From Alphaproteobacteria bacterium (GTDB lineage: Bacteria > Pseudomonadota > Alphaproteobacteria > Sphingomonadales > Kordiimonadaceae), in NCBI GenBank assembly GCA_021774735.1, contig JAJFIS010000040.1, positions 1 to 34,671 on the forward strand: DNA of 34,671 bases, in the 5' to 3' direction. Every line of letters starts with the position of its first letter. The first letter of the stretch is position 1. Under the pieces are notes generated by a model. That model did not search any database, had not been told where the DNA came from, and was given only the letters and a program-made list of their open reading frames with translations. Shown in pieces: positions 512 through 29,610 of the stretch. The translations under genes and the position numbers were made by a program.

Positions 512-524
512 TAGGACACCTCCA

Positions 525-2316: not shown

Positions 2317-2344
2317 AAGGACTTAACATTTCTGCTAAGTCCTT
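2317..2344 (-). terminator. Rho-independent terminator after tRNA-fMet
   Basis: A 9-bp perfect stem AAGGACTTA/TAAGTCCTT (2336-2344 with 2317-2325) with a 10-base loop is followed on the minus strand by a T-run (2313-2318). It lies 8 bases past the CCA end of the tRNA gene and reads in the same direction. It separates the tRNA from the traG-mobC region. Confidence 0.8.
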
Positions 2345-2352
2345 GTTTTTAT

Positions 2353-2429
<77 letters not shown>

Positions 2430-11213: not shown

Positions 11214-11981
11214 ATGAAATTAACAAAGAAAACAATGTTGGCTGCCAGCCTTGGTGTCGCAGTCATATTTGCACCGATGCAGGCGTTTGGTGAGGATATT
11301 CCATCTTACATTCAAGCTGCGGTCGATAGTAGTGAGCGGCCCAAGGCGGATGTATCCCGTGACGTTGGCCGTAAACCTGCTGCTATTCTTACTTTTGCTG
11401 GCATCAAACCTGGCATGACAATTTTAGATGTGAACTCAGGCAGTGGTTATTATTCTGAAATTCTATCAGTGACAGTGGGGGATGCGGGTAAAGTTTATGC
11501 CCATAACGGCAGTGTATATTGGGACTTTGTTAAAGCGAACATAAAGCAACGTTATGATGGGCGGCTTAGTAATGTGACTTTGGTACATACAGGGCGCGAG
11601 GAAATTGATCTAGCCGAGGGCAGCATAGATGTGGCAATCGCCGCGCTTGCTTATCATGACTATTGGTATGTTCACCCGGCACGCAGTGCTCCGGAAGACA
11701 TCATCGGCATTAACAAAACAGTCCTGAAAGCTTTAAAGCCCGGTGGGCATTATATCATTATCGACCATATTGGCCCCAAGGGCAGCGACGCTGAACTGAT
11801 TAATAGTTTGCACCGGATTGATCCGGCTATTGTTCAAAAACAAATGGAGGAAGCTGGCTTTAGATTACTTGAGACAAGTGACATTTTGCATAATCCAGAT
11901 GATCCAGCGGACGCATCGCCCTTTCGGCAAGGCTTTCGCTTCAAGACCAACCGCTTTGTTTATAAATTTGTGAAAGAATAA
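11214..11981 (+). CDS. Exported methyltransferase-like protein (COG4798 type)
   Basis: 255 residues. A signal peptide covers residues 1-26 (KLTKKTMLAASLGVAVIFA, cleavage near AFG/ED). The mature part has a methyltransferase fold: KPAAILTFAGIKPGMTILDV, a modified motif I DVNSGSGYYSEIL, and AIAALAYHDYWY, a hallmark of the small family of predicted methyltransferases with signal peptides. GGAG stands 10 bases before the ATG. A SAM enzyme outside the cytoplasm is puzzling, since SAM is not known to be available there; members may have another ligand or activity. It stands alone between two divergent or convergent glycan genes, and there is no evident terminator. Confidence 0.85.
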   Translation: MKLTKKTMLAASLGVAVIFAPMQAFGEDIPSYIQAAVDSSERPKADVSRDVGRKPAAILTFAGIKPGMTILDVNSGSGYYSEILSVTVGDAGKVYAHNGSVYWDFVKANIKQRYDGRLSNVTLVHTGREEIDLAEGSIDVAIAALAYHDYWYVHPARSAPEDIIGINKTVLKALKPGGHYIIIDHIGPKGSDAELINSLHRIDPAIVQKQMEEAGFRLLETSDILHNPDDPADASPFRQGFRFKTNRFVYKFVKE

Positions 11982-12020: not shown

Positions 12021-13190
12021 TTATAAAAATCTGTTTGGTGGCGTATAGTTGATTTTTTCATCGGTTTTCATCCAATTTTGTCTAGCGCGCAGTTTGCGGC
12101 CTAACCAATTGGGCAAAATTGCTTTGATGAATTCATCAAAAGCATGGCGAACCAGATACCGTTTGCGGTATTTGAGCAGAATTTTTTCAACCTCGCTGTT
12201 GCCAACACGTCTTGCCAGATCAACGATGTCTTCCAGTAACACCAACGCCGCATGTTCCACGGGTTTTAAAATTTTAAGTCCAATTTTTGCATAGTCATAA
12301 GGCAGAGCGGGGCTTTCCATGCCAAGCAGGTATAAAGCTATACCTGTGCGGACACATTTTGGGCAGGCCCCACAATTATGGCTAGAGCTTTTCCAACATA
12401 CTTGCAACGCGTTTAGCAGGTATGGGTTGCTTGCGATGGCCTCGGTCTTTTCTGTTCGGCTAACTTCCGCCCCTGAATGAATAACCTCTGTTCGGTTTGT
12501 GCTCCACAGCGGGTCCATCAGTGAGTGGCTGCCGTCTGGTTCAAGATGACCATAGGAATAGCCCGACGAAATAATATTCATATCATGGCCAAATAAGGTA
12601 CCAAAAGACGTAATGACGGCACCGTGGGCAAGGTGCCAAGAAACACCGGCATCATGTGTTACATCGCGAATATTGGTCTCTACCGTGATGAGGTTCTTAC
12701 CAAAATGATCAGCAACTTTTTGCTTCTGGGCAATGGTTTTTGGCCAGTGGTCTTGATTCTTCCAGTCGTCAAAACAATTGATCACCAGAATATCGCTGAT
12801 TTCATCCATATATTTATTAAGCGAATGTGACCCGTCTATCCCGCCAGAATAATTGCACAGCGCCCCTTGGACATGGGCTTTGGTCTCTTGTATTTTGGCA
12901 TGGACTTTTATGTGCGTTAGAGCCGGATTCCAGCGATGCATGATATCTTGCACGGCAGACAGGTTTTCTGCGAATGTGGCGGACAGCGGCAAATCATCGG
13001 GCATTTGGATATCACAGCCCCGGTACATCGCGATAGACAGTAAGGGTGCCACAAAAATTTCACCGCGCTTTTCTGGAATAACACGCCCTGATGTGCGGAA
13101 AAATATTTTTTCATCGTTCCAAATTGCGCTCAGCTCTGATCCCCCTTGGGTGGCTTCAAGTGCCGCGTCGTTCAATTGGATTTTCGTCAT
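12021..13190 (-). CDS. PP-loop ATPase-like protein with QueC-like cysteine cluster
   Basis: 389 residues. Residues 115-123 read SGGIDGSHS, a variant of the PP-loop SGGxDS that binds ATP and adenylates a carboxyl or carbonyl group. At 265-279 lies CWKSSSHNCGACPKC (C-x7-C-x2-C-x2-C), very like the zinc site of QueC, which makes a nitrile from a carboxylate with ammonia. The segment DGSHSL occurs twice (119-124 and 219-224). The N-terminal third (1-105) is not recognisable. I know no named function for this architecture. Context among glycan genes suggests it activates a carboxyl group or amidates a sugar, as the PP-loop protein WbpG does in O-antigen synthesis. It diverges from an ATP-grasp gene over a 200-bp spacer. 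Confidence 0.72.
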   Translation of the reverse strand: MTKIQLNDAALEATQGGSELSAIWNDEKIFFRTSGRVIPEKRGEIFVAPLLSIAMYRGCDIQMPDDLPLSATFAENLSAVQDIMHRWNPALTHIKVHAKIQETKAHVQGALCNYSGGIDGSHSLNKYMDEISDILVINCFDDWKNQDHWPKTIAQKQKVADHFGKNLITVETNIRDVTHDAGVSWHLAHGAVITSFGTLFGHDMNIISSGYSYGHLEPDGSHSLMDPLWSTNRTEVIHSGAEVSRTEKTEAIASNPYLLNALQVCWKSSSHNCGACPKCVRTGIALYLLGMESPALPYDYAKIGLKILKPVEHAALVLLEDIVDLARRVGNSEVEKILLKYRKRYLVRHAFDEFIKAILPNWLGRKLRARQNWMKTDEKINYTPPNRFL

Positions 13191-13391
13191 CAGTGCATAC
13201 CCTTGTTACATAACTAATCTAAGCTTTCTGTCAGTATTATAGCTGTTGAAAAACCAACACAGCTTGAATACATTAAGAAACAACTTACCCATGTGTCTAG
13301 CATTAGTTTGTATGACATGAGACAATGTATATTTACAATTCTCTGGTTCAGATTCTTTAGATTATTAACTTGGTAAGCATGAGGGGGAAAT

Positions 13392-14438
13392 ATGAATTTC
13401 AGAAAATGGCTTTTTAAACGTACCTATTTTTGGCGCTATTTTTGGCGGAATGAATTCAATGATAAAAGCGCTGCGGCATTTCCTTTTTGGACACGCATAT
13501 ATTATCTAATTCGCGGGTTTACATCAGAAAGCAGGACTGTTTCAGGCGTTGGCCAAAGCCATCCGCTGTCAACTTATGTTAATGATATTGTATGGGGGCA
13601 TACAATGCAGTTTCTGGCAGGTAACCCAAACATATTTAATGATAAAGAAATTTTTGAAAAAGCAGCAAAAGAAAAAAGTATTAATACGCCTCCTTTATTA
13701 GCCGTGTTTTCTAACCAAGAGATGCGGATTGGCGGTGTAGTGGTTGATGCCTGTACTGGAGTTCATCAATTGCTGGACGATCATGGTGATTTAGTCTTCA
13801 AAATGGCTGTAGGCCATGGTGGACACGGTCTCCACATTGTTACAAAAGAGGCTGGGAAATTTTTGGTGGGTGGTGCTGAGGTTAATATTAAGCAGTGGTT
13901 AGCGCGTTTGGATAAGAAATATTTGATCTATAATAAGCTAGTGAATCACTCTTATGCACAAAACATATATTCAAGATGCCTGAATACAATCAGACTGTTG
14001 ACCCTTTGGGATTACGAAGAGGATTGCCCCTATGTTGCGGCGGCAGTACACCGTTTTGGTGGTGGCACGAGGGGTCCAGTTGATAATGTCACAAAAGGAG
14101 GTGTTCTCGCCAATATTGATCTTGCAACGGGTGTTCTTGGTGAGGTTTGCTTGCCTAGATATGGTAAGCCATTGGAAAGAACGGATTGTCATGATCAGAC
14201 GAACGCTTTAATAACGAGAGTACAGATCCCCTTCTGGGAAGACATAAAAAAAGCATGTCTGCATGCAGCAAAAGAATTTCAGGAAAATCCATTTATTGGA
14301 TGGGATATTGCTGTTTTAGAGGATGGCTTTACGGTTGTTGAAGCGAATGAATCTTCTAATATCTCTATGCATCAGGCGTTTCTGCCCATGCGACTTGATC
14401 CGCTTTTCATTCCATTTTTAAAGCACCATAACATATGA
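13392..14438 (+). CDS. Sugar-transfer-associated ATP-grasp protein (ATPgrasp_ST type), copy 1
   Basis: 348 residues. ATP-grasp enzymes join a carboxylate to an amine or thiol through an acyl phosphate; this subfamily is predicted to act in surface polysaccharide synthesis. Visible are an ATP-binding Lys and glycine loop FKMAVGHGGHG (136-146), LNTIRLLTL (197-205), GGGTRGPVDNVTKGG (223-237), and the metal/ATP site GWDIAVLEDGFTVVEANES (303-321) with D305, E317 and N319. AGGGGGAAAT stands directly before the ATG. The gene is AT-rich compared with grxD next door. It diverges from the PP-loop gene and converges on grxD. It is related to the protein at 22341-23390 but not a recent duplicate. The substrate is unknown. 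Confidence 0.85.
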   Translation: MNFRKWLFKRTYFWRYFWRNEFNDKSAAAFPFWTRIYYLIRGFTSESRTVSGVGQSHPLSTYVNDIVWGHTMQFLAGNPNIFNDKEIFEKAAKEKSINTPPLLAVFSNQEMRIGGVVVDACTGVHQLLDDHGDLVFKMAVGHGGHGLHIVTKEAGKFLVGGAEVNIKQWLARLDKKYLIYNKLVNHSYAQNIYSRCLNTIRLLTLWDYEEDCPYVAAAVHRFGGGTRGPVDNVTKGGVLANIDLATGVLGEVCLPRYGKPLERTDCHDQTNALITRVQIPFWEDIKKACLHAAKEFQENPFIGWDIAVLEDGFTVVEANESSNISMHQAFLPMRLDPLFIPFLKHHNI

Positions 14439-14467
14439 TGCTCTAATTTTTTTGGTGGCATTTAGGC

Positions 14468-14782
14468 CTATTGGGTGACCATTTTCTGTAGCTCGCCGCT
14501 TTCAAACATCTCGCGGATGATATCGCAGCCACCAACAAATTCACCGCCGACATATAGCTGCGGGATGGTGGGCCAATCGCTGTATGCTTTAACTCCTTCA
14601 CGAATTTCTGCATCTTCCAGCACATTATAGCTTTCATACTGTACCTGCAGGTGGGCTAGCACTTGCGCTACTGTGCTGGAAAAGCCACATTGAGGAAACG
14701 TTGGCGTACCCTTCATAAAAAGGACGACGGGGTCTTTTTTAACGATTGTATCGATGCGGTCAAAGGTGGCTGTATCGGTCAT
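14468..14782 (-). CDS. grxD: Monothiol glutaredoxin, Grx4 family
   Basis: 104 residues, a single thioredoxin fold. The active-site CGFS is at 32-35, preceded by FMKGTP and followed by WPTIPQLYV and GGCDIIREM, the glutathione-binding elements of the class. These proteins bind a [2Fe-2S] cluster as a dimer or with BolA, and work in Fe-S transfer and iron sensing. It is 136 bases downstream of bolA on the same strand, and in many alphaproteobacteria the order purL-bolA-grxD is contiguous. The length is normal for the family. Probably co-transcribed with bolA. Confidence 0.97.
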
Positions 14783-14918
14783 AATTTACCTCTTATTGCT
14801 ACGGAAAAGCACGAAGCCATTTCCATATGTGTGTGGCTGTTAGTCATCATGTAATAGAGCTACATGCAAATTCCAACCATTATAGTATGATTTATTGAAA
14901 TTTAGTGAATTTTAAAGG

Positions 14919-15158
14919 TTATTGTTCTTCGGGGACGCTGGTTTGTAGGGCAAGCGCATGTAGTTCGCCGCCCATTTTGCCTTTCAGCGTCGCATAGACC
15001 ATCTGGTGTTGCTTGACCCGCGAAAGGCCTTCAAAACCTTTGAACTCAATATGGGCCGCATAATGGTCCCCGTCCCCACGCAGGTCCTCAATGTTGACCT
15101 TGGCACCGGGCAGGCCTGTTAAGATAAGCTTTTCAAGCTCTGTAATTGGCATGGGCAT
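14919..15158 (-). CDS. bolA: BolA family protein, Grx4 partner
   Basis: 79 residues, the short BolA type. The core has LPGAKVNIEDLRGDGDHYAAHIEF, with the His in the fold's ligand position, then FEGLSRVKQHQMVYATLKGKMGGELHALAL, the family's helix-turn-helix-like signature with conserved FxGxxxxxRHxxVY pattern. BolA proteins bind monothiol glutaredoxin and share an Fe-S cluster; they act in Fe-S delivery rather than as classical repressors. AGGAG stands 7 bases before the ATG. It is separated from purL, its usual upstream neighbour, by more than 8 kb of glycan genes. Confidence 0.95.
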   Translation of the reverse strand: MPMPITELEKLILTGLPGAKVNIEDLRGDGDHYAAHIEFKGFEGLSRVKQHQMVYATLKGKMGGELHALALQTSVPEEQ

Positions 15159-15291
15159 TATCTGTCTCCTAAGTTAAAGTATCACTGGCATGGGACGGCG
15201 GGCAGGTCAATGCAAGATGTATTTATTTCTACATAATATATTGACATTTCACGCTTTAATATTGTCCTCTGACGGAAAGGAGAAATTTCAT

Positions 15292-16233
15292 ATGCAAATG
15301 CCATGTAAACCTAATGTGTTTTTAGTGGGCGCGGCAAAATGCGGCACATCTGCGTTGAATGATTTTTTGCATATGCATCCAGAGATTTTTGCAGCAAAAG
15401 AACCAAATTACCTATGTCGAGACCTTTTCCCCCCAAATGCAAAGTCTTTGAGCGAGGCTGTATATGCTTCTCATTTTCAAGGATGGAGCGGAGAACCCTT
15501 TATCATGGATTCTAGCGTGTTTTACCTTTATTCTGCAACAGCAGCTAAAGATATCAAAAGCTTTAATCCGGACGCAAAAATATTAATTCAATTACGCAAT
15601 CCCTTAGAGGTTTTACCGTCGCATCACAGTCAATTAGTCTTTGAGCAATATGAAAAAATTGAAAGCTTTGAGGCAGCGATAGCAGAGGAAGATAGGCGTA
15701 AAAAGTTAATTAACGGATCAAAAACATGGGGAAATAAGATATTATTATACCGAAATTTTGTACATTTTTCCACTCAAGTAAAACGATACTTTGATGTCTT
15801 TGGCCGCGAAAATGTGCATGTCTCAATTTTTGATGACTATAAAGCAGATATTGAAAAAATCTATGGCTCGGTTCTTGAGTTCTTAGGAGTTAAAGATACA
15901 GAGTTCAAACCCTTCATCGATCTTTCAGACAAAGACAGGCAAAATGCAAATAGAAGCATGAAGAACCAATGGGTTATGACAAATTTTGTCCGCGACCCAC
16001 CACAGTGGATTTCAGTTCCGGCAAAGCTGTTATTTCCCTTAAAGGCCCGAAATAAATTGAAAAAATTTATCAGAGCGAAAAATACCGTTTACCACAAAAG
16101 AGAAGCCATGCCAGATTGGCTATATGAACAGCTCCGCGTGGAATTAACTCCTGAAGTGAAAGCGTTGTCAGCATTGCTGGATCGGGATTTGATGCATTGG
16201 GTTGAGCCTAGAAAAAGGGTGTCAGGTGACTGA
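15292..16233 (+). CDS. Sulfotransferase, PAPS-dependent, 1
   Basis: 313 residues. Sulfotransferases move sulfate from PAPS to a hydroxyl or amine of a carbohydrate or lipid. The 5'-phosphosulfate loop is GAAKCGTSALNDFL (13-26), and the 3'-phosphate site is ILIQLRNPLEVLPSHHSQL with R102 and S110. I chose ATG at 15292 because AAAGGAG lies about 9 bases upstream and the loop then falls at the usual distance from the N-terminus; the frame is open to 15190. It diverges from bolA and overlaps the next flippase by 8 bases. AT-rich, unlike bolA. The acceptor is presumably the glycan made by neighbouring genes. Confidence 0.92.
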   Translation: MQMPCKPNVFLVGAAKCGTSALNDFLHMHPEIFAAKEPNYLCRDLFPPNAKSLSEAVYASHFQGWSGEPFIMDSSVFYLYSATAAKDIKSFNPDAKILIQLRNPLEVLPSHHSQLVFEQYEKIESFEAAIAEEDRRKKLINGSKTWGNKILLYRNFVHFSTQVKRYFDVFGRENVHVSIFDDYKADIEKIYGSVLEFLGVKDTEFKPFIDLSDKDRQNANRSMKNQWVMTNFVRDPPQWISVPAKLLFPLKARNKLKKFIRAKNTVYHKREAMPDWLYEQLRVELTPEVKALSALLDRDLMHWVEPRKRVSGD

Positions 16234-17710
16234 AAACCCTGATAAGCCACTCGGCCAAACCGTTGTTCGTGGTGCCGTTTGGATGGTGGCGATGCGTTGG
16301 TTGATGCGTGGAATTGGCTTTATTAACATTGCATTGCTGGCACGGCTACTTGCTCCATATGACTTTGGCATGGTGGCGCTGGCTTTGCCGCTGCTGGGTA
16401 TTTTAATGGGCATCATGGATGTGGGGGCGCGGATTGCCCTTGTCCGCCATCCACACGCTACTGACACGCACTATCATACCTTTTGGACCATAGGTATCAT
16501 TCAGGCTTCGCTTTGCTGTTTGGGCATGCTGATAGCCGCCCCCTTCGCGGTTGATTTTTACAATGAACCTGCGGTTTTTGAACTTTTCGTCGTGCTGGGG
16601 GCCAGCACTTTGCTGCGGGCTTTTGAAAATGGCTATGTTGTGGCCCTGCAAAAGGATATGCACTTTGGCAAGGATTTCGCCTATAACACTTCGGTGACGG
16701 TCATCCGGGTTGGTATAACCATTGGCCTTGCTTTTTATCTGCGCGATTACCGGGCGCTGTTGTATGGTCACCTTGCGGGAAGCATTGCCCAGGTTGTTAT
16801 CAGCTATCTTATTTGCGGGAACCGCATGTGCCGCTTTTCACTGAAAGCTTTCGACGACCTTTGGGGCGTTTCCAAATGGCTTTTTGTTCAAAATCTCGGT
16901 ATATTAATGTCAGAGCATATTGATAGGTTAATGTTGGGGCGCCTTACGTCACTTGATAAATTAGGTGGGTATACGGTTGCTGCACAAATTGCGGCTTTAC
17001 CATTTGAAGTTCTTTTGGCCCCACTCTCTAGAGTGATCCAGCCAGCATATAGCAAGAAATCTGAAGCAGGAGAGAGCTTATCTCAAGCATTTTTGTTCGT
17101 TCTAAGCGGTCTTTCACATATTTCATCTGCTTGCTACATAGGGCTTGCATTGGTAGCTGAGCCATTCATTTCGCTTGTTTTCGGTACCCAATGGCTTGAG
17201 GCAGTGCCTTATGTTGTTTGGTTTGCCTTAATTTTAGGAGTAATATCCCTTACTAATCCTATAAGGGCCTATTGGATAGGCATAAAATTTATGAAGCTTC
17301 CAGCTTTAGTCACCGTGATAAACGGTGTATTATTGGTAGCAGGAATAGTGCCAGCATTTAATTTGTTCGGTATTATTGGTATAATTTATTGGCGTATGAC
17401 GATAGTTATTATTGAGACTATCATTCGCATTACTCTTCTTCACCATTACCAAGGAATAGATGCCCGCCAAATTTTAATGATTATCATTCGCCCCGTAATG
17501 GCAGCAGTATTTATGGCTGGAATTATTTTATTGTCTCGAGATTATATACAAAGCGATAGCGCTTTTCTTACTCTAGCTCTGAATGCTTTACTTGGTGCAT
17601 TTAGTTATGTGATTGGCGTCATATTAGTTTGGAATTTATTAGGACGGCCAGATGGGGCGGAGAGATGGGTGTTGGAAATAGGCCGTAAAAAACTGCGGAC
17701 TATCCTTTGA
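16226..17710 (+). CDS. Lipopolysaccharide/oligosaccharide flippase (PST-type, WzxC-like)
   Basis: About 494 residues from GTG 16226, chosen because AAAAAGGG lies 6 bases upstream; an in-frame TTG at 16202 lacks such a site. It has about 12-14 membrane segments and the N-terminal family pattern VVRGAVWMVAMRWLMRGIGFINIALLARLLAPYDFG. It differs from the flippase at 5704-6924 and belongs to the longer lipopolysaccharide-export branch. Translation is coupled to the upstream sulfotransferase by an 8-base overlap. Odd point: the first 650 bases are GC-rich (33 of 60 at 16261-16320) and the rest AT-rich (22 of 60 at 17281-17340), with the change near 16880, which suggests a recombinant gene. Confidence 0.9.
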   Translation: MTENPDKPLGQTVVRGAVWMVAMRWLMRGIGFINIALLARLLAPYDFGMVALALPLLGILMGIMDVGARIALVRHPHATDTHYHTFWTIGIIQASLCCLGMLIAAPFAVDFYNEPAVFELFVVLGASTLLRAFENGYVVALQKDMHFGKDFAYNTSVTVIRVGITIGLAFYLRDYRALLYGHLAGSIAQVVISYLICGNRMCRFSLKAFDDLWGVSKWLFVQNLGILMSEHIDRLMLGRLTSLDKLGGYTVAAQIAALPFEVLLAPLSRVIQPAYSKKSEAGESLSQAFLFVLSGLSHISSACYIGLALVAEPFISLVFGTQWLEAVPYVVWFALILGVISLTNPIRAYWIGIKFMKLPALVTVINGVLLVAGIVPAFNLFGIIGIIYWRMTIVIIETIIRITLLHHYQGIDARQILMIIIRPVMAAVFMAGIILLSRDYIQSDSAFLTLALNALLGAFSYVIGVILVWNLLGRPDGAERWVLEIGRKKLRTIL

Positions 17711-17762
17711 TCATTATTTAGATAAATTCACATTATTTGGTATAGATCTTTGGTGTCATTTC

Positions 17763-18836
17763 TTATGCTTTTTTTAAAAATTTAAATGACAGGTAATACT
17801 TAATAAGCACTTTAATCGTAGCACTCATATATTTAAATAAATTTGGTTTATACCAGTGGGGGGATGTAGTTGAGTTGAAGATCTGTAAAATTGATAACCC
17901 CTTTTCAATCCCAGTAATTGTTATCGCACGCCACCAATTTTCACAAGCATTCTGACGAATGGCTACCAACTCATCTGGTGTAAGGTTATACGATGTGCAG
18001 AATGCTTCACAAATCGAATGCATTAATTCACCAACCTTTAATAAAGTTTGAATATCAGGAGATGCTTTGCCGCCATTTAGTATAGAAAAATATTGATTAA
18101 CTAATAATTGGTCATAATTGCCACCGGTGAGTAAATTAATCTCTCCATGCAATAAAACGCCTCCATTACTAGTCATTTCCTCGGTAGCTTTAATGCTCCA
18201 ATTCTGTCCATGTAAGTGGTAGTCGGTTAGAGGCTCTGGCAGCTTCATTATTTTTGAAACTTTAGCGTATTGATAATAGATATCCCAGTCGTCAGCGAAG
18301 GTGAGATCAGCAGAATAATTGATATTATATTTTTTTACTACTGAAGCCCTAGCCATTGTTGAGGAATGAAGAAACGTAGAACTTTGAAATAAACGGTATT
18401 TTAAAAAATTTGAAGTGTAGGAAGCTGATTTAGTTGTATAATTGAGTTTGTTGTTTATGACGATATTTATTTCGGTGCCACATAAACCTACGTCTGGATT
18501 AGCTTCCATAGCATTTGTTTGTAATTCAAGTTTTTGGTGGTTCCAAATGTCGTCATGATCACAGTGGGCGATGTATTTTCCTGTTGCTAATCTCATGCCT
18601 TTTTTACGGGAATGCACGACGCCTATATTTTCTCCATTTATCACTATTTTGATTCGATGGTCATTAATGTTTTGGATGACATCTGAAGTGCCATCGTTGG
18701 AAGCATCATCAATTATGATAAGCTCAAAATTTGTGTATGTTTGGCCTAATATCGAATTAATTGTAGGTATTATCTTTTTTTTACATTTGTATGCACACAA
18801 TATAATACTAATATATGGCAATTGATGAGTTGTCAT
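17763..18836 (-). CDS. Glycosyltransferase family 2
   Basis: 357 residues, GT-A fold. The N-terminal half holds ISIILCAYKCKKKIIPTINS, LIIIDDASNDGTSD with D43-D44, ENIGVVHSRKKGMRLATGKYIA and the metal site DHDD (93-96). The C-terminal half (from about 240) has no recognised motif and may bind the acceptor. Very AT-rich and rich in Asn, Ile and Lys, unlike the purine genes, as expected of a transferred gene. It points against the flippase and stands alone on this strand. The sugar donor cannot be told from sequence. Confidence 0.9.
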   Translation of the reverse strand: MTTHQLPYISIILCAYKCKKKIIPTINSILGQTYTNFELIIIDDASNDGTSDVIQNINDHRIKIVINGENIGVVHSRKKGMRLATGKYIAHCDHDDIWNHQKLELQTNAMEANPDVGLCGTEINIVINNKLNYTTKSASYTSNFLKYRLFQSSTFLHSSTMARASVVKKYNINYSADLTFADDWDIYYQYAKVSKIMKLPEPLTDYHLHGQNWSIKATEEMTSNGGVLLHGEINLLTGGNYDQLLVNQYFSILNGGKASPDIQTLLKVGELMHSICEAFCTSYNLTPDELVAIRQNACENWWRAITITGIEKGLSILQIFNSTTSPHWYKPNLFKYMSATIKVLIKYYLSFKFLKKA

Positions 18837-18946
18837 AGAGTCGAAGCCTTTTCGTCAGAGATTAGATGGTTTTCATTTACTGTTTCTGAAAATTATATTT
18901 AGCAATATGATAAGCGACTTAATACCACTTAGAAGGAACTATCGCA

Positions 18947-19948
18947 ATTACATTAGATAACCCTAAAAAGCTTGTAATAGTTGCCGGAATGCATCGATCG
19001 GGCACGTCTGCTTTTACAGGTGCGCTGGAAGGCATTGGCGTAAAGTTGGGTGGGACTCTTGCTGAAGGGCACACAAAAATAAATGAAAAAGGGTATAAAG
19101 AAGATATAGCTCTTATTGATTTGCATGAGAATTTATTGTGGTCACTACCTTCTTCATGGGATGATATTTTTCCATTGAATTTAGCTCAGATTGACCAACA
19201 AGTTCTTTGTGATTCTAAGCTAAAAATCCGCAAAATTTTGCTAAACTATTTTAAGCGACATAACTGTTGCGGTCTTAAAGACCCAAGAGTGTGCCTTTTC
19301 TTACCTTTATGGCTTGAGGTTTGTGCTCAGGAGGAAATTGAGGTGTGCTTTGTTGTCCCGTTTCGAAACCCTTGTTCAGTGGCTAAATCATTACATGCTC
19401 GAAATGGATTTCTATCCGACAGATCGTCTGTTCTTTGGGCTAAATATCTAATCGCGGCTGAACATTATTCTAGGGGGTACCCAAGGGTAATGATTTCTTA
19501 CGAGAGTTTGATTATAGACCCTAAGAAGGCATTGAAGGTCATCATGCAAAACTTAGAGTTACCAATAAAAGGAAATTTAGAGGACCAAATTGTTAAGGGA
19601 TCAAAATTTGTAACTACGCGCTTAAACCATTCTGATTCTATTGTACCTATTGATAATTTCTCACCGTCATTTGTGGTGGACTTATATAAAATATTATTAG
19701 AGTTAGATGGAGAAGGTCCTTCTTCCGACTTTAATTATAAATTCGATGAGGTCAGCAATTCATATTTTCAATATTTTGAAAAATTGGATCCTGTATTTTT
19801 AGATCAATTAAATACATTTAAAGGGCATGCAAAAACATTTAGATCTTATTGGAGGAATGCAATGAATTCTAAAGCGATAAAAATTAGTCAAACAATAAAA
19901 AAATTCCCGCAGATATTCATCAAACTTTTAAATGGAAACAAACATTAA
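18947..19948 (+). CDS. Sulfotransferase family protein, 2, with a probable ATT start
   Basis: About 333 residues from ATT 18947, or 319 from the first ATG (18989). The PAPS-binding strand-loop reads KLVIVAGMHRSGTSAFTGAL; ATG 18989 lies inside this loop (its Met is that of MHRSGTS), so translation must begin upstream. After the in-frame stop at 18920-18922 there is no ATG, GTG or TTG, but AGAAGGA (18931-18937) stands 9 bases before ATT 18947. Further motifs are CGLKDPRVCLFLPLW and FVVPFRNPCSVAKSL, the 3'-phosphate site. The C-terminal 90 residues are not recognised. AT-rich. It faces away from the GT2 at 17763-18836 and probably modifies the same glycan. Confidence 0.82.
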   Translation: MTLDNPKKLVIVAGMHRSGTSAFTGALEGIGVKLGGTLAEGHTKINEKGYKEDIALIDLHENLLWSLPSSWDDIFPLNLAQIDQQVLCDSKLKIRKILLNYFKRHNCCGLKDPRVCLFLPLWLEVCAQEEIEVCFVVPFRNPCSVAKSLHARNGFLSDRSSVLWAKYLIAAEHYSRGYPRVMISYESLIIDPKKALKVIMQNLELPIKGNLEDQIVKGSKFVTTRLNHSDSIVPIDNFSPSFVVDLYKILLELDGEGPSSDFNYKFDEVSNSYFQYFEKLDPVFLDQLNTFKGHAKTFRSYWRNAMNSKAIKISQTIKKFPQIFIKLLNGNKH

Positions 19949-19998
19949 CAACACACTAGAAGATATACTCGTTTTATTGATATCTAACAATTGCATTA

Positions 19999-21207
19999 TT
20001 ATTTTAAAAAATAGCCCTTCAGCCAATTTTTGATCGAAAGCAGATAAAGCCAGCGGTCACCCGGAAAAAGCAAGTCTGATTTTAGGCGGGGGTCTAAGAA
20101 CCTCAGGAAAAAGCCCAAAATGCTTTTCACTTTGCGCCCGAAGCTTAGTTGGCGGTCTTTCAATACTGAAACCAGATACCCTATTTCGCCCGGGAAAGTT
20201 TGGCGGCAAAATAGATTCAATGGATAGTCCATGATTTTTTCTGCCGAAATTCCTGTCCAATGATCCATTTGGATGCGCGGGGCATCGACACCCGCAAAAA
20301 GATCAAGATGTAAATTTGCCCAAAAACGGGTGTTTGCTTCGAGGAAGTAAAAGTTTCCGCTGGCATCATCATAGCGATATTCCATCATCGCAGGACCGTC
20401 CCACCCCATGGCTTTCAGGCGCATTACGGCGTCTTTTGTAAGCCAGTCATCACCAAAGGTATGGCGCAAAACGGTTAAGCCACCACTATGGGGGGTTTCA
20501 TGGTCAGCAATAGTTAAGCATTTGCTCAGCATTTCGCCCTTGGAAAAAATAACATTCACGCAGGCTTTGCGCCCCGGCACAAACCCTTGGATCAGCACTT
20601 GGCAGTAGCTATCCAGCAGTTCGGCGGTTTGTTTGTGGGCATCTTCATGCGTGACGACCTTGATAACAAGGTCATCCCCGTCCCCTGTGAGCGCGTCAAC
20701 AGATGATGTCTTGATAAAGCAGGGCAGGGCCAAGCTTTGGTATGCGGCAAGGTCTTTTGGCTGTTTTTTAGTGACTACCAAGGCAGAGGGCACATTCATG
20801 CGCGCAGAAGGGTCCTCAGCGCGGTCAAATACAGACTGTGTTTCTGCTTTGGAAAAAGCGATCCGCAGGGTGGCGGGTGAATTATGCTGCGGGAAGAAAG
20901 GCAGAAAATAGTCGATGTCAGCCATCAGTGTTTTTATCAGCCCGCCGGACGGCACAATATGCTGGATGTCGTTATCTTCAATATATTGCTTCAACCAAGG
21001 GATAAAATTAGCCGAACCCTTGTTTGGGCAAATTATTTTATGAGCAGCGAAATTAGATTTAAGCCCAAGAGCATCCGCCTTGTCAGAGACTGCATGGACG
21101 TCATAGCCTGCACTGCCAAGCGACCGCACGACCCCAATCATGCCCAGTGCTTGAACATGATCAACAAGAATAGAATGTTTTGCGCGCAATGAAGCAATAT
21201 TAGGCAT
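19999..21207 (-). CDS. ATP-grasp ligase (carboxylate-amine ligase type)
   Basis: 402 residues. The N-terminal domain (1-110) is Rossmann-like with SILVDHVQALGMIGVVRSLG; a central part carries LPCFIKTSSVDALTGDGDDLVIKV with K166 as a likely ATP contact; QVLIQGFVPGRKACVNVIFSKG follows; and the catalytic end is PAMMEYRYD...FYFLEANTRFW with E276, E290 and N292. This layout matches CarB-like ATP-grasp ligases, some of which join amino acids to sugar acids or other amino acids. It is unlike the two ATPgrasp_ST proteins in the locus. The gene is GC-richer than its AT-rich neighbours on both sides. Substrates are unknown; a role in amidating the glycan is inferred. Confidence 0.85.
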   Translation of the reverse strand: MPNIASLRAKHSILVDHVQALGMIGVVRSLGSAGYDVHAVSDKADALGLKSNFAAHKIICPNKGSANFIPWLKQYIEDNDIQHIVPSGGLIKTLMADIDYFLPFFPQHNSPATLRIAFSKAETQSVFDRAEDPSARMNVPSALVVTKKQPKDLAAYQSLALPCFIKTSSVDALTGDGDDLVIKVVTHEDAHKQTAELLDSYCQVLIQGFVPGRKACVNVIFSKGEMLSKCLTIADHETPHSGGLTVLRHTFGDDWLTKDAVMRLKAMGWDGPAMMEYRYDDASGNFYFLEANTRFWANLHLDLFAGVDAPRIQMDHWTGISAEKIMDYPLNLFCRQTFPGEIGYLVSVLKDRQLSFGRKVKSILGFFLRFLDPRLKSDLLFPGDRWLYLLSIKNWLKGYFLK

Positions 21208-21306
21208 GTATTTCCGCTTTCCATTTTATAAATACCACATATAGTGTATAATAGAGAAATGTTCTTGATGATTTGAGGTGGTCGTAAATCTTTTAAATCA
21301 ACTTAA

Positions 21307-22326
21307 ATGGGATTAATGAGAAAAATATTACTCATACTAGCAAAATACTCCGGCATGTTCTTCTTAGCGCGCTTTCTAACTCGGAGAAGTGTGAAGATAA
21401 TTAGCTATCATGCTATTGCTGCTTATGACTTAAATATATATAACCCAACTTTGTTTCTAACGGTAGATAAGCTTGCCCGCCGCATTGCTTGTATGAAAGC
21501 TAAAAAATATAAATTTATCTATTTAAACGAAGCAGTTAGTCGCTTGAGGGCAGGCACAATTGAACCCAATTCTGTAGTAATTACCATTGATGATGGGTGG
21601 CAGAGTTTTCAGGACATTGCATGGCCTATGTTCAGGCAAGCTGACATGCCAGTATCCTTATATGTATATACAGAAGCTGTCGAAAGCGGTGAGCCCAACT
21701 TTAATGTAGCCTTGTGCTATCTGCTGTGGCATGCAGAGCTGAAAGGCTTGGGGGAGGTCACTTTTCTAGACGGCTTAGGCGAAGAAATATCTTTTGCGGC
21801 AACAGATATGAGAGCCCAAGATGATTTAATGGACCATGCGGCAACTTTGCAACCCCCTGATCGAACTGATATTTTAGATGCCATAGCAGAGAACGCTGGG
21901 CTTAGTTCTTTATGGGCTGAGCGCCGCGACGCCTTTGTTTTTTCCAGCCCAGATGACCTTCGCAAGATGGCTGCAGATGGATTAGATATCCAATTGCACA
22001 CGCACACCCACAAGTTCGGAGGCCTATCAGAAGCTGAATCAAAATCTGAGATTAGCCAAAATATTGATAGGCTATCTGCTTGGTTGCCGGGCAAGAAATT
22101 TACGCATTTTTGTTATCCAAGCGGGGATTACGAAGCCCCACAATTGCCGTGGCTGGCGGACATGGGTGTGAAAAGCGCCACCACCTGTGAAGCGGGCTTG
22201 AATAACCCTGGCGTTAATCCATTTTTATTGCGCCGTTTTTTAGACGCTGATACTGTCAGCGATATTGAGTTTGAGGCAGAAGTTACGGGTTTCCTGCCAT
22301 GGCTTAGATGTTTAAGGCGCGGGTAA
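21307..22326 (+). CDS. Polysaccharide deacetylase (NodB/CE4 family)
   Basis: 339 residues. CE4 enzymes remove acetyl groups from N-acetylhexosamines in polysaccharides. Motif 1 is TIDDGW (93-98, normally TFDDG), motif 2 is HTHTH with H231 and H235 as metal ligands, and HFCYPSGDYEAP supplies motif 3. Residues 130-205 form an insertion before motif 2. The N-terminus has a hydrophobic stretch (MRKILLILAKYSGMFFLARFL) that may anchor it. ATG 21307 has a poor ribosome site; ATG 21316 is an alternative. Composition changes within the gene: 22 of 60 G/C at 21421-21480 and 37 of 60 at 22141-22200. It is followed after 14 bases by an ATP-grasp gene on the same strand. Confidence 0.9.
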   Translation: MGLMRKILLILAKYSGMFFLARFLTRRSVKIISYHAIAAYDLNIYNPTLFLTVDKLARRIACMKAKKYKFIYLNEAVSRLRAGTIEPNSVVITIDDGWQSFQDIAWPMFRQADMPVSLYVYTEAVESGEPNFNVALCYLLWHAELKGLGEVTFLDGLGEEISFAATDMRAQDDLMDHAATLQPPDRTDILDAIAENAGLSSLWAERRDAFVFSSPDDLRKMAADGLDIQLHTHTHKFGGLSEAESKSEISQNIDRLSAWLPGKKFTHFCYPSGDYEAPQLPWLADMGVKSATTCEAGLNNPGVNPFLLRRFLDADTVSDIEFEAEVTGFLPWLRCLRRG

Positions 22327-22340
22327 TTTAGGGCAGGCTA

Positions 22341-23390
22341 ATGAATATATTGAGCAAAACAGTCGCCCTTCTTAAGGGCCGGTCAAAATTGCCGGGGTTT
22401 AAATCTTTTTCGCGGCAACTATTTGAAATCATAGTTTTATTTACCCTTCGCGGCATTGGACCCGGCTATTATCACTTGGCAGAAATGGGGCGCAAGGACA
22501 GGGGATGGGACTATCTTTTTGGTTTTGCGAGGGCACCTGAATATCACCGGGCGGTTAACCGTATCAATGATCCCTTGTTTCGCAAATTATCGCAGCATAA
22601 AGCGCTGGAGAAAGCAGTGCTAACGGCTTATGGCATCCCCACCACGCCCTTGCTGGGTCATTTGCACCCCCAAAATGGTTTAACAACTAAGGGCGAAGGT
22701 CTGAAAGATGCAGCGGCGCTTTCAATGCTTCTGGCGAACCACTTGGGTGAAATTATTTGTTTTAAGCCGGTTGAAGGCGTTGGTGGTTCAGGGTTCAAGG
22801 CTTGTATGATAAGTGAAAAGTCTGGGGATATAACACTCAAAAACCTGAAAGATGGGGCTGTATTTTTAGTGCCCGAGTTTTTAGAAGCCATTACTTGGGA
22901 TATTGGCATGGTGATCGAGAGCTATGTTGAACAGCATGCCGAACTCGCTAAATTTCATCCGACAAGCGTCAATACGATGCGGGTTCTGGTTCTACGCGGC
23001 GCAAATGGAAAGGCGGGTGTTGTTGGCTCTACTTTCAGAATTGGCTGTGGTGGCTCTGTGGTTGATAACGCCACTGCAGGCGGCATAATGGCCCATGTTA
23101 ATACTGAAACAGGGGTGATGAACGCGGGCGTTTTTATGGAACCATCGCTTAATCACTTTGCATGCCATCCTGATACAAATGTCCCATTGGAAGGGGCCGT
23201 TTTGCCATTTTTTGATGAAATGCAAGACCTTGCTTGTCGCGCCCTTGACGCTTATCCCCATATAGGCTTTGTCGGCGCTGATGTTGCTTATACCAAATCA
23301 GGCCCGATGATTATCGAGATGAACCCCGAACCTGATTATGTCTTTATGGCGATCAATCAGCTTGGTTCGCGTAAATTGCTGGGTGTTTAG
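22341..23390 (+). CDS. Sugar-transfer-associated ATP-grasp protein (ATPgrasp_ST type), copy 2
   Basis: 349 residues. ATP-binding loop FKPVEGVGGSGFKAC (141-155, K142), SVNTMRVLVLRG, GCGGSVVDNATAGGIMAHV and the metal site FVGADVAYTKSGPMIIEMNPE (about 310-330, with D314, E326 and N328). These are the same elements, in the same order, as in the protein at 13392-14438. The N-terminal 60 residues are basic and have an amphipathic or hydrophobic stretch FEIIVLFTLRGIGPGYY. It follows the deacetylase by 14 bases and is presumably co-transcribed: a free amine made by deacetylation could be the acceptor of the ligase, which is inference. It converges on purL with a 31-base gap and no clear terminator. 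Confidence 0.85.
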   Translation: MNILSKTVALLKGRSKLPGFKSFSRQLFEIIVLFTLRGIGPGYYHLAEMGRKDRGWDYLFGFARAPEYHRAVNRINDPLFRKLSQHKALEKAVLTAYGIPTTPLLGHLHPQNGLTTKGEGLKDAAALSMLLANHLGEIICFKPVEGVGGSGFKACMISEKSGDITLKNLKDGAVFLVPEFLEAITWDIGMVIESYVEQHAELAKFHPTSVNTMRVLVLRGANGKAGVVGSTFRIGCGGSVVDNATAGGIMAHVNTETGVMNAGVFMEPSLNHFACHPDTNVPLEGAVLPFFDEMQDLACRALDAYPHIGFVGADVAYTKSGPMIIEMNPEPDYVFMAINQLGSRKLLGV

Positions 23391-25623: not shown

Positions 25624-26298
25624 TTATCCAATGCCTGCAAGGACGCTTTCAAAAAGCGCTCTACCGTCATGTATACCGTCAAAGCCACCAAGGGCAGGGT
25701 CTACCATGCGCTCAGGGTGGGGCATCATGCCTAGGATGTTGCCAGCCTTGTTGGTAACCCCCGCGATGCCATTGCAGCTACCATTGATGTCTTCCGTATA
25801 ACGAAAGGCCACTTGGCCGCCATCTTCCAGTGCGGAAATAGTGTCGCTGTCGGCAAAATAATTGCCGTCATGGTGGGCGACGGGAACGGTGATCTCTTGG
25901 CCCCCGTCATAACCACTTGTGAAGCGGGTATCGGCGTTGACCACTTTTAAGCTTACGTCCCGGCAGACAAATTTTAGCCCCGCATTACGCATCAAGGCAC
26001 CGGGCAGTAAGCCAGCCTCGGCAAGTACCTGAAAGCCGTTGCATACCCCCAGCGTTGGCACGCCTGCTTTGGCCCGCTTGGCAACTTCACCCATTATGTG
26101 GGAACGGGCGCTCATGGCGCCGCAGCGCAAATAGTCGCCGTAAGAAAAACCACCGGGCAGGGCGATAAAATCAACCGGGTCAAAGTCATACTCTTGGTGC
26201 CAAACCATGGTCGGCTTAACCCCGGTCACCTTCTCAATCGCGACAGCCATATCCCGGTCACAGTTGGAGCCGGGGAATACAATGACAGCTGATTTCAT
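25624..26298 (-). CDS. purQ: Phosphoribosylformylglycinamidine synthase subunit PurQ (glutaminase)
   Basis: 224 residues, a class I glutamine amidotransferase that gives ammonia to PurL. The nucleophile is C86 in [15 protein letters not shown], and the His-Glu pair is in MMPHPERM near the C-terminus. [13 protein letters not shown] is the oxyanion region. The start codon overlaps the stop of the upstream unknown gene in ATGA, an arrangement that could make its translation depend on that gene. Normal length. Confidence 0.98.
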
Positions 26299-28434: not shown

Positions 28435-29610
28435 TTAAGCCATGGGGTATAGAAGTGGTAGCCATCGCTCAATAGCATTCACAGGGAAACCCAACCTGAC
28501 TGGCCCACGGACGCTGTCGGAAACCAGATAGCCTTCCTGTAGCAAAGCACCCATTACATCGCGGGCTTGGCGTTCTTTATAGCCCGTTATTTCGCTCGCT
28601 TGACCTCGCTTAAATTCCCCTGCAAGGACGGCCTCCCTTAAAAGCTTAAAGGACCCTTTTGGTAATCGACGCGCTGCGGTTTCATCATTAATATATCTTT
28701 CAATACGACCAAGAAATTCACGCATGTCCAACAGCTTAGCCATATAGTCTACTTGGTCGATGCAGCATTTTAAGAAGAAAACACAAAAATCTGTTAAAGC
28801 GGTTTCGCTTAAATTACCGCGACCATCCAAGTCTCCCCGACGTGGCTCATCAGCACTAGCAAGAAGTTCTTTATAGGCCATAACATTTCTGGCCAGCCCC
28901 CTTGATATTGACCATAGATTACTGCCAATACCAATCTGTTGGAGATAGGCATGCGAAAATAATCGTACAACCCGGCCATTGCCGTCTATGAAAGGGTGGA
29001 TCCAAACAAAACGATGATGTGATGCGGCGACGGCTATAATTTGTTGCACTTTTGAAAGCCGATTGGGCATATATGCTTCTTCAAACCGTCGCAAAAACCG
29101 GTGAAGATTCTGCGCTTTTGGCGGTAGATGCTTGCCAACTTGGACTTCGGTCATTCTAATTTCACCAGGCGTTATAGCCAGATGTTTTTTGGTGTTTGGG
29201 TTTATAGACCATAATAATTCCGGCGGTAGATGTTCATAGAATTCCCAGTGAATTGCTGTGAAAAAATCAGGCGATGTGATGTTGGCACCGAACTTATTAT
29301 TGTCAATCTTCTGCTGGACGTGAATATGGGCGACCGCTTCAAGTTGAAGGTTTCTTTTTTCTATATCGTCGGAAAAATCTTGAGCAAGTGCCGCATCAAT
29401 ATCCTTTGGGTGGGTGTTATGGCCTTCGATCAAGTTGCTGTAATAGCAATTCATGGAGCGCACCAAATTACCCACAGACTTTTGGAGCACAGGATTTATC
29501 GTGCCCGCAAGGGCACCCGCCCTTGTCGCCAAAGTTAGGGCTAGGTCCTCAAGCTCGCGGTTCCCTGTTGGGGGCAGCATTGGTTCCATATATGTTATAT
29601 CTTGAGGCAT
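28435..29610 (-). CDS. fic: Fic family protein (AMPylase type, class II)
   Basis: 391 residues. Fic enzymes move AMP or similar groups from nucleotides to target proteins. The active site HPFIDGNGRVVR is at 205-216 with the catalytic His205. An N-terminal inhibitory helix motif SNLIEG (S58 to G63) fits the (S/T)xxxE(G/N) autoinhibitory pattern, so class II with intramolecular inhibition. The C-terminus (about 310-385) has helical turns with KGSFKLLREAVLAGEFKRG and ASEITGYKERQARDVMGALLQEGYLVSDS, a winged-helix DNA-binding domain, so it may regulate its own gene. Paired repeats lie directly upstream. The gene follows speE by 155 bases. Probably accessory. Confidence 0.93.
   Translation of the reverse strand: MPQDITYMEPMLPPTGNRELEDLALTLATRAGALAGTINPVLQKSVGNLVRSMNCYYSNLIEGHNTHPKDIDAALAQDFSDDIEKRNLQLEAVAHIHVQQKIDNNKFGANITSPDFFTAIHWEFYEHLPPELLWSINPNTKKHLAITPGEIRMTEVQVGKHLPPKAQNLHRFLRRFEEAYMPNRLSKVQQIIAVAASHHRFVWIHPFIDGNGRVVRLFSHAYLQQIGIGSNLWSISRGLARNVMAYKELLASADEPRRGDLDGRGNLSETALTDFCVFFLKCCIDQVDYMAKLLDMREFLGRIERYINDETAARRLPKGSFKLLREAVLAGEFKRGQASEITGYKERQARDVMGALLQEGYLVSDSVRGPVRLGFPVNAIERWLPLLYPMA

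What the first reader, a model, noticed from the sequence alone, without database searches (positions are those of the whole stretch)
12021..23390. Three ATP-grasp proteins and one QueC-like PP-loop protein in one sulfated-glycan locus: possible undescribed amide decoration system
The window holds two ATPgrasp_ST proteins (13392-14438, 22341-23390), one CarB-type ATP-grasp ligase (19999-21207) and a PP-loop protein with a C-x7-C-x2-C-x2-C cluster (12021-13190). They are mixed with two sulfotransferases, a deacetylase, glycosyltransferases and flippases. Each of these ATP-using folds can activate carboxyl groups; the deacetylase directly before ATP-grasp copy 2 (14 bases apart) could free an amine as acceptor. 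The motifs are seen; an amino-acid- or amide-decorated sulfated surface glycan is inference. I know no characterised locus with this exact set.
Basis: partly seen in the sequence, partly recalled or inferred. Interest (0 to 1): 0.72.

Follow-up and report, generated by a model that had tools for sequence, protein, structure and literature searches.

The report
Deacetylase–ATP-grasp cassette for glycan decoration
A bacterial sugar-polymer locus carries a set of enzymes (a deacetylase, ATP-grasp ligases and a QueC-fold protein) that recurs in a distant relative and probably hangs amide-linked groups on surface sugars, although no product has been seen.

Summary
In detail: two ATPgrasp_ST proteins, a further ATP-grasp protein, a CE4 deacetylase and a PP-loop protein with C-x7-C-x2-C-x2-C lie at the stated coordinates. 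A MAG labelled Rhodoferax carries the whole set plus a flippase within 12 kb, beside exosortase-A genes. Next to close relatives of the ATP-grasp protein 19999-21207, a deacetylase lies within 1.3 kb in 7 of 8 other genomes and ATPgrasp_ST within 13 kb in 6 of 8. One Omnitrophota protein fuses deacetylase and ATP-grasp domains. The PP-loop model is nearest QatC and QueC (Z 13.7, 12.4) but fails QueC membership. The ATPgrasp_ST model is nearest RimK, ArgX/LysX and Ddl, with carboxylases close behind. Most likely the deacetylase frees a sugar amine and the ligases attach amide-linked groups; no chemistry is shown. New variant of a known kind: the Wbp/Vim deacetylate-then-aminoacylate logic with ATP-grasp ligases in place of an acyltransferase. 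'Sulfated' rests on one clear and one doubtful sulfotransferase.

The parts
12021..13190 (-). PP-loop (N-type ATP pyrophosphatase) protein, QatC/QueC fold, Cys265-x7-Cys273-x2-Cys276-x2-Cys279
   Evidence: AlphaFold2 mean pLDDT 89.1; below the QueC PF06508 cut-off
13392..14438 (+). ATPgrasp_ST copy 1 (divergent from the PP-loop gene, 201 bases between)
   Evidence: PF14397 111.8 bits; conserved Lys, Arg, Asp, Glu, Asn kept
19999..21207 (-). CarB/biotin-carboxylase-type ATP-grasp protein, core partner of the deacetylase
   Evidence: sub-threshold Pfam hits, family profile A6
21307..22326 (+). CE4/NodB-type polysaccharide deacetylase with intact Asp-Asp and His-x3-His motifs
   Evidence: PF01522 60.2 bits; D95, D96, H231, H235 in 9 of 9 rows of A5
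22341..23390 (+). ATPgrasp_ST copy 2, 14 bases behind the deacetylase
   Evidence: PF14397 140.8 bits; fold nearest RimK/ArgX/LysX/Ddl
16202..17710 (+). Wzx/MOP-type flippase; a relative (32% identity) follows the CarB-type ATP-grasp gene in L030
   Evidence: PF13440 189 bits
15190..16233 (+). sulfotransferase (locus context, not shown to belong to the cassette)
   Evidence: PF00685 42.3 bits
18989..19948 (+). doubtful sulfotransferase (locus context)
   Evidence: PF00685 12.6 bits, under the cut-off of 22
17763..18836 (-). family 2 glycosyltransferase (locus context)
   Evidence: PF00535 103 bits
5704..11004 (-). rest of the glycan locus: second flippase, acyltransferase 3, methyltransferase, family 2 and group 1 glycosyltransferases

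Best explanation
This is a glycan amide-decoration cassette. Shown by sequence: a CE4 deacetylase and a CarB-type ATP-grasp protein form a recurring pair, usually with an ATPgrasp_ST protein and sometimes with a QatC/QueC-fold PP-loop protein; in two other genomes the pair lies beside exosortase-A exopolysaccharide genes. Inferred: the deacetylase removes N-acetyl from a hexosamine of a lipid-linked or nucleotide-linked glycan intermediate. The paired ATP-grasp ligase activates a carboxylate (amino acid or small hydroxy/keto acid) as an acyl phosphate and joins it to the freed amine. The ATPgrasp_ST ligases add a further residue, or amidate a uronic acid, in RimK/LysX/Ddl manner. The PP-loop enzyme adenylates a carboxylate on the product, to make an amide or to change the attached residue. 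The flippase exports the unit. The confidence is for the general statement (deacetylate, then form ATP-dependent amides on a surface glycan); order and substrates are guesses.
For: 1) Whole set in another lineage: L030 (MAG labelled Rhodoferax) holds ATPgrasp_ST (34% identical), PP-loop (40%), a second ATPgrasp_ST (C-terminal part only), deacetylase (32%), CarB-type ATP-grasp (37%) and flippase (32%) within 12 kb, next to exosortase-A genes TIGR03098, TIGR03100, TIGR03101, all over their cut-offs. 2) Pair: a deacetylase relative lies within 1.3 kb of the close CarB-type relative in 7 of 8 other genomes (G083, G051, G087, G062, G048, G556, G396; not G261). ATPgrasp_ST lies within 13 kb in 6 of 8 (not G051, G062). 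3) Fusion: a 950-aa open frame in an Omnitrophota MAG matches the deacetylase profile (residues 13-322, E 2e-37) and the CarB-type profile (569-883, E 1e-22), about 5 kb from a PP-loop family member. 4) PP-loop gene within 2 kb of ATPgrasp_ST in 4 of 7 other genomes: G051, G071 (2+2 on one strand), G396 and G400; not G048, G073, G261. 5) Genome level, 396 genomes of the order: close CarB-type (E<1e-40) in 7, close PP-loop (E<1e-50) in 6, both in 4; hypergeometric 5e-7, or 2e-5 without the window's genome. 6) ATPgrasp_ST fold nearest RimK Z 15.0, ArgX 14.9, D-Ala-D-Lac ligase 14.8, LysX 14.8, which are tied. 7) PP-loop fold nearest QatC and QueC; QueC turns a carboxylate into amide and nitrile, and Cap9 joins a carboxylate to a protein amine (PMC13279940, passages). 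8) Conserved ATP-grasp and deacetylase residues intact.
Against: No chemistry is known for any member. The CarB-type profile's best PDB sequence matches are carboxylases, and in the ATPgrasp_ST fold list biotin/pyruvate carboxylases and carboxyaminoimidazole ribonucleotide synthase follow at Z 13.0-13.7 (a biotin carboxylase is Foldseek rank 2), so the fold does not single out amide formation. That model is middling (pLDDT 71.2, 5 sequences). For the PP-loop model Foldseek had no match at E<=0.001 (best 1.9e-3). P0001 has Gly for the last Ser of SGGxDS (5 of 28 rows lack the Ser, P0001 included) and may be weak or altered. The PP-loop gene is often alone; in G051 the two halves of the set lie about 1 Mb apart. 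Of the 34 named loci L035-L068 (several on short contigs), 0 hold ATPgrasp_ST and 1 a CarB-type domain, the fusion. G261 shows no deacetylase in the 20 kb held. Relatives are not independent: G051, G062, G073, G083 and G087 share one genus label, and the E-value cuts for 'close' were set after seeing the lists. The chance models ignore that glycan genes cluster.
Confidence: 0.5

Rival explanations
1. Junk-drawer locus: the enzymes are separate tailoring genes that gather in surface-glycan islands by lateral transfer, each acting on a different residue or polymer, with no joint pathway.
For: The locus is full of tailoring genes. The PP-loop subfamily moves about: beside glyQ in L019, between semialdehyde dehydrogenase/hexapeptide transferase and phaC genes in L022, near an integrase in L024, near a Rep-like gene in L020. 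PP-loop and CarB-type genes are about 1 Mb apart in G051.
Against: Recurrence of the set in L030; deacetylase/CarB-type pairing in 7 of 8 other genomes; the fusion protein. The third ATPgrasp_ST of the same genome (C15) has none of the partners within about 9 kb (L021).
Confidence: 0.2
2. [quoted passage not shown]
For: In G083 the ATPgrasp_ST-deacetylase-CarB-type set lies directly behind a MurL-family paralogue (152.8 bits; another MurL-like gene at 411 bits lies elsewhere in that genome) with GGGKDS and C-x9-C-x2-C-x2-C by eye. MurL needs ATP, releases AMP and lacks known conserved domains (PMC5808125, passages).
Against: One genome only; in the other loci held no relative of that protein was found (tblastn of 167 loci and the window). 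P0001 has no NCBIfam MurL hit; the profile match between the PP-loop family and the MurL-like protein is only the Cys knuckle (hhalign prob 9).
Confidence: 0.1
3. PP-loop enzyme as an amide- or amidine-forming enzyme (QueC-, WbpS- or WbpG-like) that makes a uronamide or acetamidino sugar, independent of the ATP-grasp ligases.
For: QueC/QatC fold. Distant relatives sit in glycan loci next to AsnB-like and pyruvyl transferase (L045), pyruvyl transferase, formyltransferase and Mur ligase genes. WbpG lies among the PF06508 clusters (PMC13329287, passages).
Against: No glutaminase recognised beside it (the GATase at 25624-26298 is PurQ by context); the close subfamily is tied to ATPgrasp_ST rather than to amidotransferases.
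Confidence: 0.15
4. PP-loop enzyme as an anti-phage protein modifier like QatC or Cap9, unrelated to the glycan.
For: Best structural match is QatC (Z 13.7, 291 residues, rmsd 4.8, first to last aligned model residue 1-344). Two of four relatives gave weak PADLOC QatC matches (E 0.11 and 0.023). Some relatives lie near DNA methylase or integrase genes.
Against: No QatA (PF07693) or TatD (PF01026) hit among the 28 window proteins scanned; no PADLOC hit for P0001 at E<=1; neighbours are glycan genes.
Confidence: 0.05
5. The ATP-grasp proteins do other ATP-grasp chemistry (carboxylation, phosphorylation or ester formation) on the sugar, not amide bonds.
For: CarB-type profile A6 matches carboxylases best (E 4e-4); carboxylases at Z 13.0-13.7 in the ATPgrasp_ST fold list.
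Against: ATPgrasp_ST copy 2 is nearest amino-acid ligases; a deacetylase partner makes sense if a free amine is the acceptor.
Confidence: 0.14

Closest known systems
Wbp/Vim pathway of Porphyromonas/Tannerella (VimE, VimA, WbpS; PMC7468200, passages)
   Same: A putative CE4 deacetylase frees a sugar amine that then receives an amino acid by an amide bond; in Porphyromonas the uronate is amidated too. VimA matches the pepcterm_femAB family TIGR03019 and WbpS-like proteins match TIGR03108; both models hit the exosortase-A locus on contig C42 of the window's genome.
   Different: VimA is a putative acetyltransferase-type enzyme; here the candidates are ATP-grasp ligases. No Wbp-type or FemAB gene was recognised in the window; no product known.
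ATPgrasp_ST (PF14397), 'sugar-transfer associated ATP-grasp'
   Same: Both copies are members by score (111.8 and 140.8 bits, cut-off 31.4).
   Different: No close relative with a solved structure (best profile match an alpha-L-glutamate ligase, E 0.0082) and, to my knowledge, no tested function; the link to a deacetylase/CarB-type pair is what this work adds.
QatC / QueC / Cap9 superfamily (PMC13279940, passages; PMC13329287, passages and parts 1-2 of 5)
   Same: Rossmann-like PP-loop core and four-Cys cluster; extra residues before and after the core as in QatC; HP motif in 27 of 28 rows (P0001 itself has HS).
   Different: Below the PF06508 cut-off; no YPDC or VPxRN; Cys spacing differs from both; sequence-profile match limited to the Cys knuckle; glycan-locus neighbours.
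HfsH/HfsK of the Caulobacter holdfast (PMC8449245, passages)
   Same: A deacetylase and a second modifying enzyme tune a surface polysaccharide in C. crescentus.
   Different: HfsK is a putative acetyltransferase, without effect in H. baltica; P0004 is far below the HfsH model cut-off (23.4 of 400 bits).
TupA / teichuronopeptide (PMC8153356, passages)
   Same: A wall polymer of polyglucuronate with poly-gamma-glutamate whose synthesis involves the tupA product (that it is an ATP-grasp protein is recalled).
   Different: No ATPgrasp_TupA hit for any of the three ATP-grasp proteins at E<=0.01.
MurL (PMC5808125, passages)
   Same: ATP-dependent, AMP-releasing enzyme acting on a sugar-linked amino acid; a MurL paralogue lies beside the set in G083.
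   Different: P0001 has no MurL hit.

Membership tests
ATPgrasp_ST (PF14397) | Score over Pfam's gathering cut-off | tested here: met
   111.8 and 140.8 bits against 31.4
ATPgrasp_ST (PF14397) | Conserved Lys, Arg, Asp, Glu, Asn of the family kept | tested here: met
   K142, R214, D242, D314, E326, N328 identical in all 14 rows of A7
QueC (PF06508) | Score over the gathering cut-off | tested here: not met
   12.2 of 22 bits; a canonical QueC is elsewhere in the genome, C51, 256.6 bits
QueC (PF06508) | C(x)8CxxCxxC, VPxRN and YPDC motifs (as given in PMC13329287) | tested here: not met
   P0001 has C-x7-C-x2-C-x2-C and contains neither YPDC nor VPxRN (read from the sequence)
QueC-superfamily fold | Rossmann-like PP-loop core with zinc knuckle | tested here: met
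   QueC 2pg3 Z 12.4 over 181 residues, rmsd 3.2; Cap9 9nto Z 11.1 over 165; Foldseek best only E 1.9e-3
QatC | C(x)19CGxCxxRR pattern and qatABD partner genes | tested here: not met
   Cys spacing x7 and CxRT ending; no QatA/TatD Pfam hit among 28 window proteins; no PADLOC hit for P0001 at E<=1
QatC | N- and C-terminal extensions on the QueC core | tested here: inconclusive
   residues before and after the core are present (core about 105-293 of 389); alignment to QatC runs from model residue 1 to 344, Z 13.7, rmsd 4.8; that they are the same domains is not shown
MurL (NF041275) | Score over the curated cut-off (700 bits) | tested here: not met
   no hit for P0001 at E<=0.01; the G083 paralogue 153 bits
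CE4 polysaccharide deacetylase (PF01522) | Score over the cut-off; Asp-Asp and HxxxH motifs | tested here: met
   60.2 of 23.1 bits; D95, D96, H231, H235 in 9 of 9 rows
HfsH (NF050820) | Score over the curated cut-off | tested here: not met
   23.4 of 400 bits
Wbp/Vim pathway | Deacetylase plus FemAB-type aminoacyl transferase plus Wbp sugar genes at one locus | tested here: not met
   within this contig: deacetylase yes; no FemAB or Wbp-type hit among the 28 window proteins; a FemAB TIGR03019 is on C42
Wbp/Vim pathway | Amino acid amide-linked to a sugar amine in the product | not testable with these tools
   needs glycan analysis
TupA (ATPgrasp_TupA) | Pfam model hit | tested here: not met
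   no such hit at E<=0.01 for the three ATP-grasp proteins
Sulfated-glycan locus | Two sulfotransferases | tested here: inconclusive
   15190-16233 42.3 of 22 bits; 18989-19948 12.6 of 22 bits

The most novel reading that the evidence does not exclude
The cassette is an ATP-grasp-based counterpart of the Wbp/Vim pathway: it makes an aminoacyl (amide-linked) sugar that ends or caps an exosortase-A-type exopolysaccharide and offers the amine to which a surface protein is joined. The QatC-fold enzyme is a further use of that fold, on a glycan-borne carboxylate rather than a deazaguanine.
Probability: 0.13. Interest if true: 0.85.

Novelty: new variant of a known kind. Interest (0 to 1): 0.6.

Why it matters
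Amino acids and amides on bacterial surface glycans are well described chemically (recalled), but many of the enzymes that install them are unknown, and ATPgrasp_ST has, to my knowledge, no tested function. A recurring deacetylase/ATP-grasp pair with a fusion protein gives a concrete reaction to test. The compound that exosortase joins to its proteins is described as unidentified in PMC7468200 (passages); this cassette lies beside exosortase-A genes in two genomes and, in the window's case, in a genome that has such a locus on another contig. A QatC-fold family outside the QueC Pfam model widens the known uses of that fold.

Tried and rejected
Viral contigs: no relative of the PP-loop protein. 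PDB sequence searches for P0001 and P0005 alone gave nothing useful. PADLOC at E<=1: no hit for the five window proteins; two of four PP-loop relatives gave weak QatC matches. Sequence-profile proof of QueC or QatC kinship failed: hhalign aligned only the Cys knuckle, prob 21 for each, while QatC against QueC gave 97.7. For that test I used 5 of the 7 QatC loci, and of 28 QueC readings the 21 with 181-279 residues. The middle part of the fusion protein looks like an acetyltransferase by eye, but the PDB search was not significant (best acetyltransferase E 0.29), so I do not claim it. A deazaguanine-conjugation reading was set aside because the motifs YPDC and VPxRN are absent; I did not search QueE or QueD in the genome. 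The fold lists shown do not name WbpG or PseA; absence there proves nothing. Plasmid searches gave only distant relatives; two loci were read. Paper searches listed no paper that by title or abstract describes this set; the library holds open-licence papers only, and Iyer et al. 2009 (PMC3268129), which as I recall predicts amidoligase roles for such ATP-grasp families, is not held.

Rows dropped before counts: L020, L023 and L024 are the same loci as L032, L031 and L033 and were counted once. Weaker hits of P0003 (E worse than 1e-40) and of the PP-loop protein (E worse than 1e-50) were left out of the 'close' counts; those cuts were chosen after seeing the lists. An ATP-grasp/ATPgrasp_ST pair in Emcibacter (L105) is only 21% identical to P0003, fell outside tblastn E 1e-4 and is not counted. 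My simple ORF caller chose some wrong frames (e.g. in L103), so final positions come from tblastn.

Full report
What is there. The window is a whole contig (C34, 34,671 bases) of a 2.78 Mb genome in 51 contigs. All coordinates are right, including the 14-base gap between the deacetylase and ATPgrasp_ST copy 2.

Co-occurrence. I searched the PP-loop protein in 396 genomes of the order (10 with a match; 6 close, E better than 1e-50) and the CarB-type ATP-grasp protein in the same number (38 with a match; 7 close, E better than 1e-40). Four genomes, from four families, have both close forms; the hypergeometric chance is 5e-7, or 2e-5 without the window's own genome. The PP-loop profile found 39 loci in named genomes. 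The nearest, in a MAG labelled Rhodoferax (L030), holds ATPgrasp_ST, PP-loop, a second ATPgrasp_ST (only its C-terminal part), deacetylase, CarB-type ATP-grasp and flippase within 12 kb, beside exosortase-A genes (TIGR03098, TIGR03100, TIGR03101).

The core pair. In the nine genomes with a close CarB-type protein, the window's included, tblastn places a deacetylase relative within 1.3 kb in 8 of 9 (not G261), and ATPgrasp_ST lies within 13 kb in 7 of 9 (not G051, G062). A simple chance model for ATPgrasp_ST gives 2e-10 for 6 or more of the 8 other genomes, and 5e-8 for ATPgrasp_ST within 5 kb of the PP-loop gene in 4 or more of 7; both ignore that glycan genes cluster. Two observations bear on that. 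The third ATPgrasp_ST of the window's own genome (C15) has none of the partners within about 9 kb. And the 34 more distant PP-loop loci L035-L068, several on short contigs, hold no ATPgrasp_ST and one CarB-type domain, although a cluster that includes a family 2 glycosyltransferase (one member checked) occurs in 15 of the 48 loci compared. That one CarB-type domain is the best single piece of evidence: in an Omnitrophota MAG a 950-residue open frame carries the deacetylase and the CarB-type ATP-grasp domain in one chain, about 5 kb from a PP-loop family member, in a locus with AsnB-like, pyruvyl transferase and Wzt genes.

The PP-loop protein. AlphaFold2 gives mean pLDDT 89. The second structural look places QatC first (Z 13.7, 291 residues, rmsd 4.8), then QueC (12.4) and Cap9 (11.1); Foldseek itself has nothing at E<=0.001, with QueC best at 1.9e-3. 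By sequence it is not a QueC: it is below the cut-off, lacks YPDC and VPxRN, and profile comparison aligns only the Cys knuckle. The family keeps an HP motif (27 of 28) like the one described for QatC, but P0001 itself reads HS, and it has Gly at the last Ser of the PP-loop. So it looks like a QatC/QueC-fold family of its own. All 14 plasmid records with a relative annotate it as hypothetical protein; two loci read, in Azospirillum and Gemmobacter, have a pyruvyl transferase next to it or nearby. It lies within 2 kb of ATPgrasp_ST in G051, G071 (two and two on one strand), G396 and G400, but not in G048, G073 or G261.

The ligases. ATPgrasp_ST copy 2 models at mean pLDDT 71 from 5 sequences and lies nearest RimK (Z 15.0), ArgX (14.9), D-Ala-D-Lac ligase (14.8) and LysX (14.8), which are tied; biotin/pyruvate carboxylases and carboxyaminoimidazole ribonucleotide synthase follow at 13.0-13.7. 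The CarB-type protein keeps the Glu/Asn/Arg set in 7 of 7 rows and its profile matches carboxylases weakly. Because of the carboxylase rows, which I had not weighed at first, I lowered the main confidence from 0.52 to 0.50 and raised the 'other ATP-grasp chemistry' rival from 0.12 to 0.14.

How it probably works. A deacetylase frees an amine; the partner ligase, in one case fused to it, acylates that amine; further ligases and the PP-loop enzyme extend or amidate. The nearest known logic is the Wbp/Vim pathway, where VimE is thought to deacetylate and VimA to add Ser or Gly to the sugar amine, and whose authors already point at exosortase loci (PMC7468200, passages). The window's genome has an exosortase and an XrtA-type EPS locus with FemAB, deacetylase and amidotransferase on another contig, so the cassette would be an addition to it, not a replacement. 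All chemistry here is inference.

Limits. Relatives in the order share ancestry, thresholds for 'close' were set after seeing the lists, many loci are MAG contigs cut short, organism names come from record titles, and no substrate is known.

Noticed in passing
window 146-2429: MobC/NikA-like protein, T4SS coupling protein (TraG/VirD4 type) and a tRNA-Met side by side near the contig end: possibly the edge of an integrated mobile element.
   Followed up: no
window 28435-29610: Fic/DOC-family protein between purC and the spermidine synthase/AdoMet decarboxylase genes.
   Followed up: no
window 11214-11981: Methyltransferase-like protein that seems to start with a signal peptide (by eye), next to the PP-loop gene.
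   Followed up: no
window 14468-14782: Glutaredoxin gene inside the glycan locus, minus strand.
   Followed up: no
L120:6351-7724 (G083): Diverged MurL paralogue directly before ATPgrasp_ST, deacetylase and CarB-type ATP-grasp; another MurL-like gene is elsewhere in that genome.
   Followed up: partly
L103 (G261/G399 C9:22783-27259): Four ATPgrasp_ST genes in tandem behind a CarB-type ATP-grasp gene.
   Followed up: partly
L027, L061, L022, L034, L062, L036: Two or three PP-loop paralogues close together; three in a row in L027.
   Followed up: no
L019:11842-12138: 98-residue ATPgrasp_ST fragment beside the full gene, perhaps a remnant of a second copy.
   Followed up: no
G000 C42 (L107, L108): Exosortase and XrtA/PEP-CTERM EPS locus in the same genome.
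   Followed up: partly
L045:16180-19032: The stretch between the deacetylase and ATP-grasp domains of the fusion protein looks like an acetyltransferase by eye; not supported by a PDB sequence search.
   Followed up: partly
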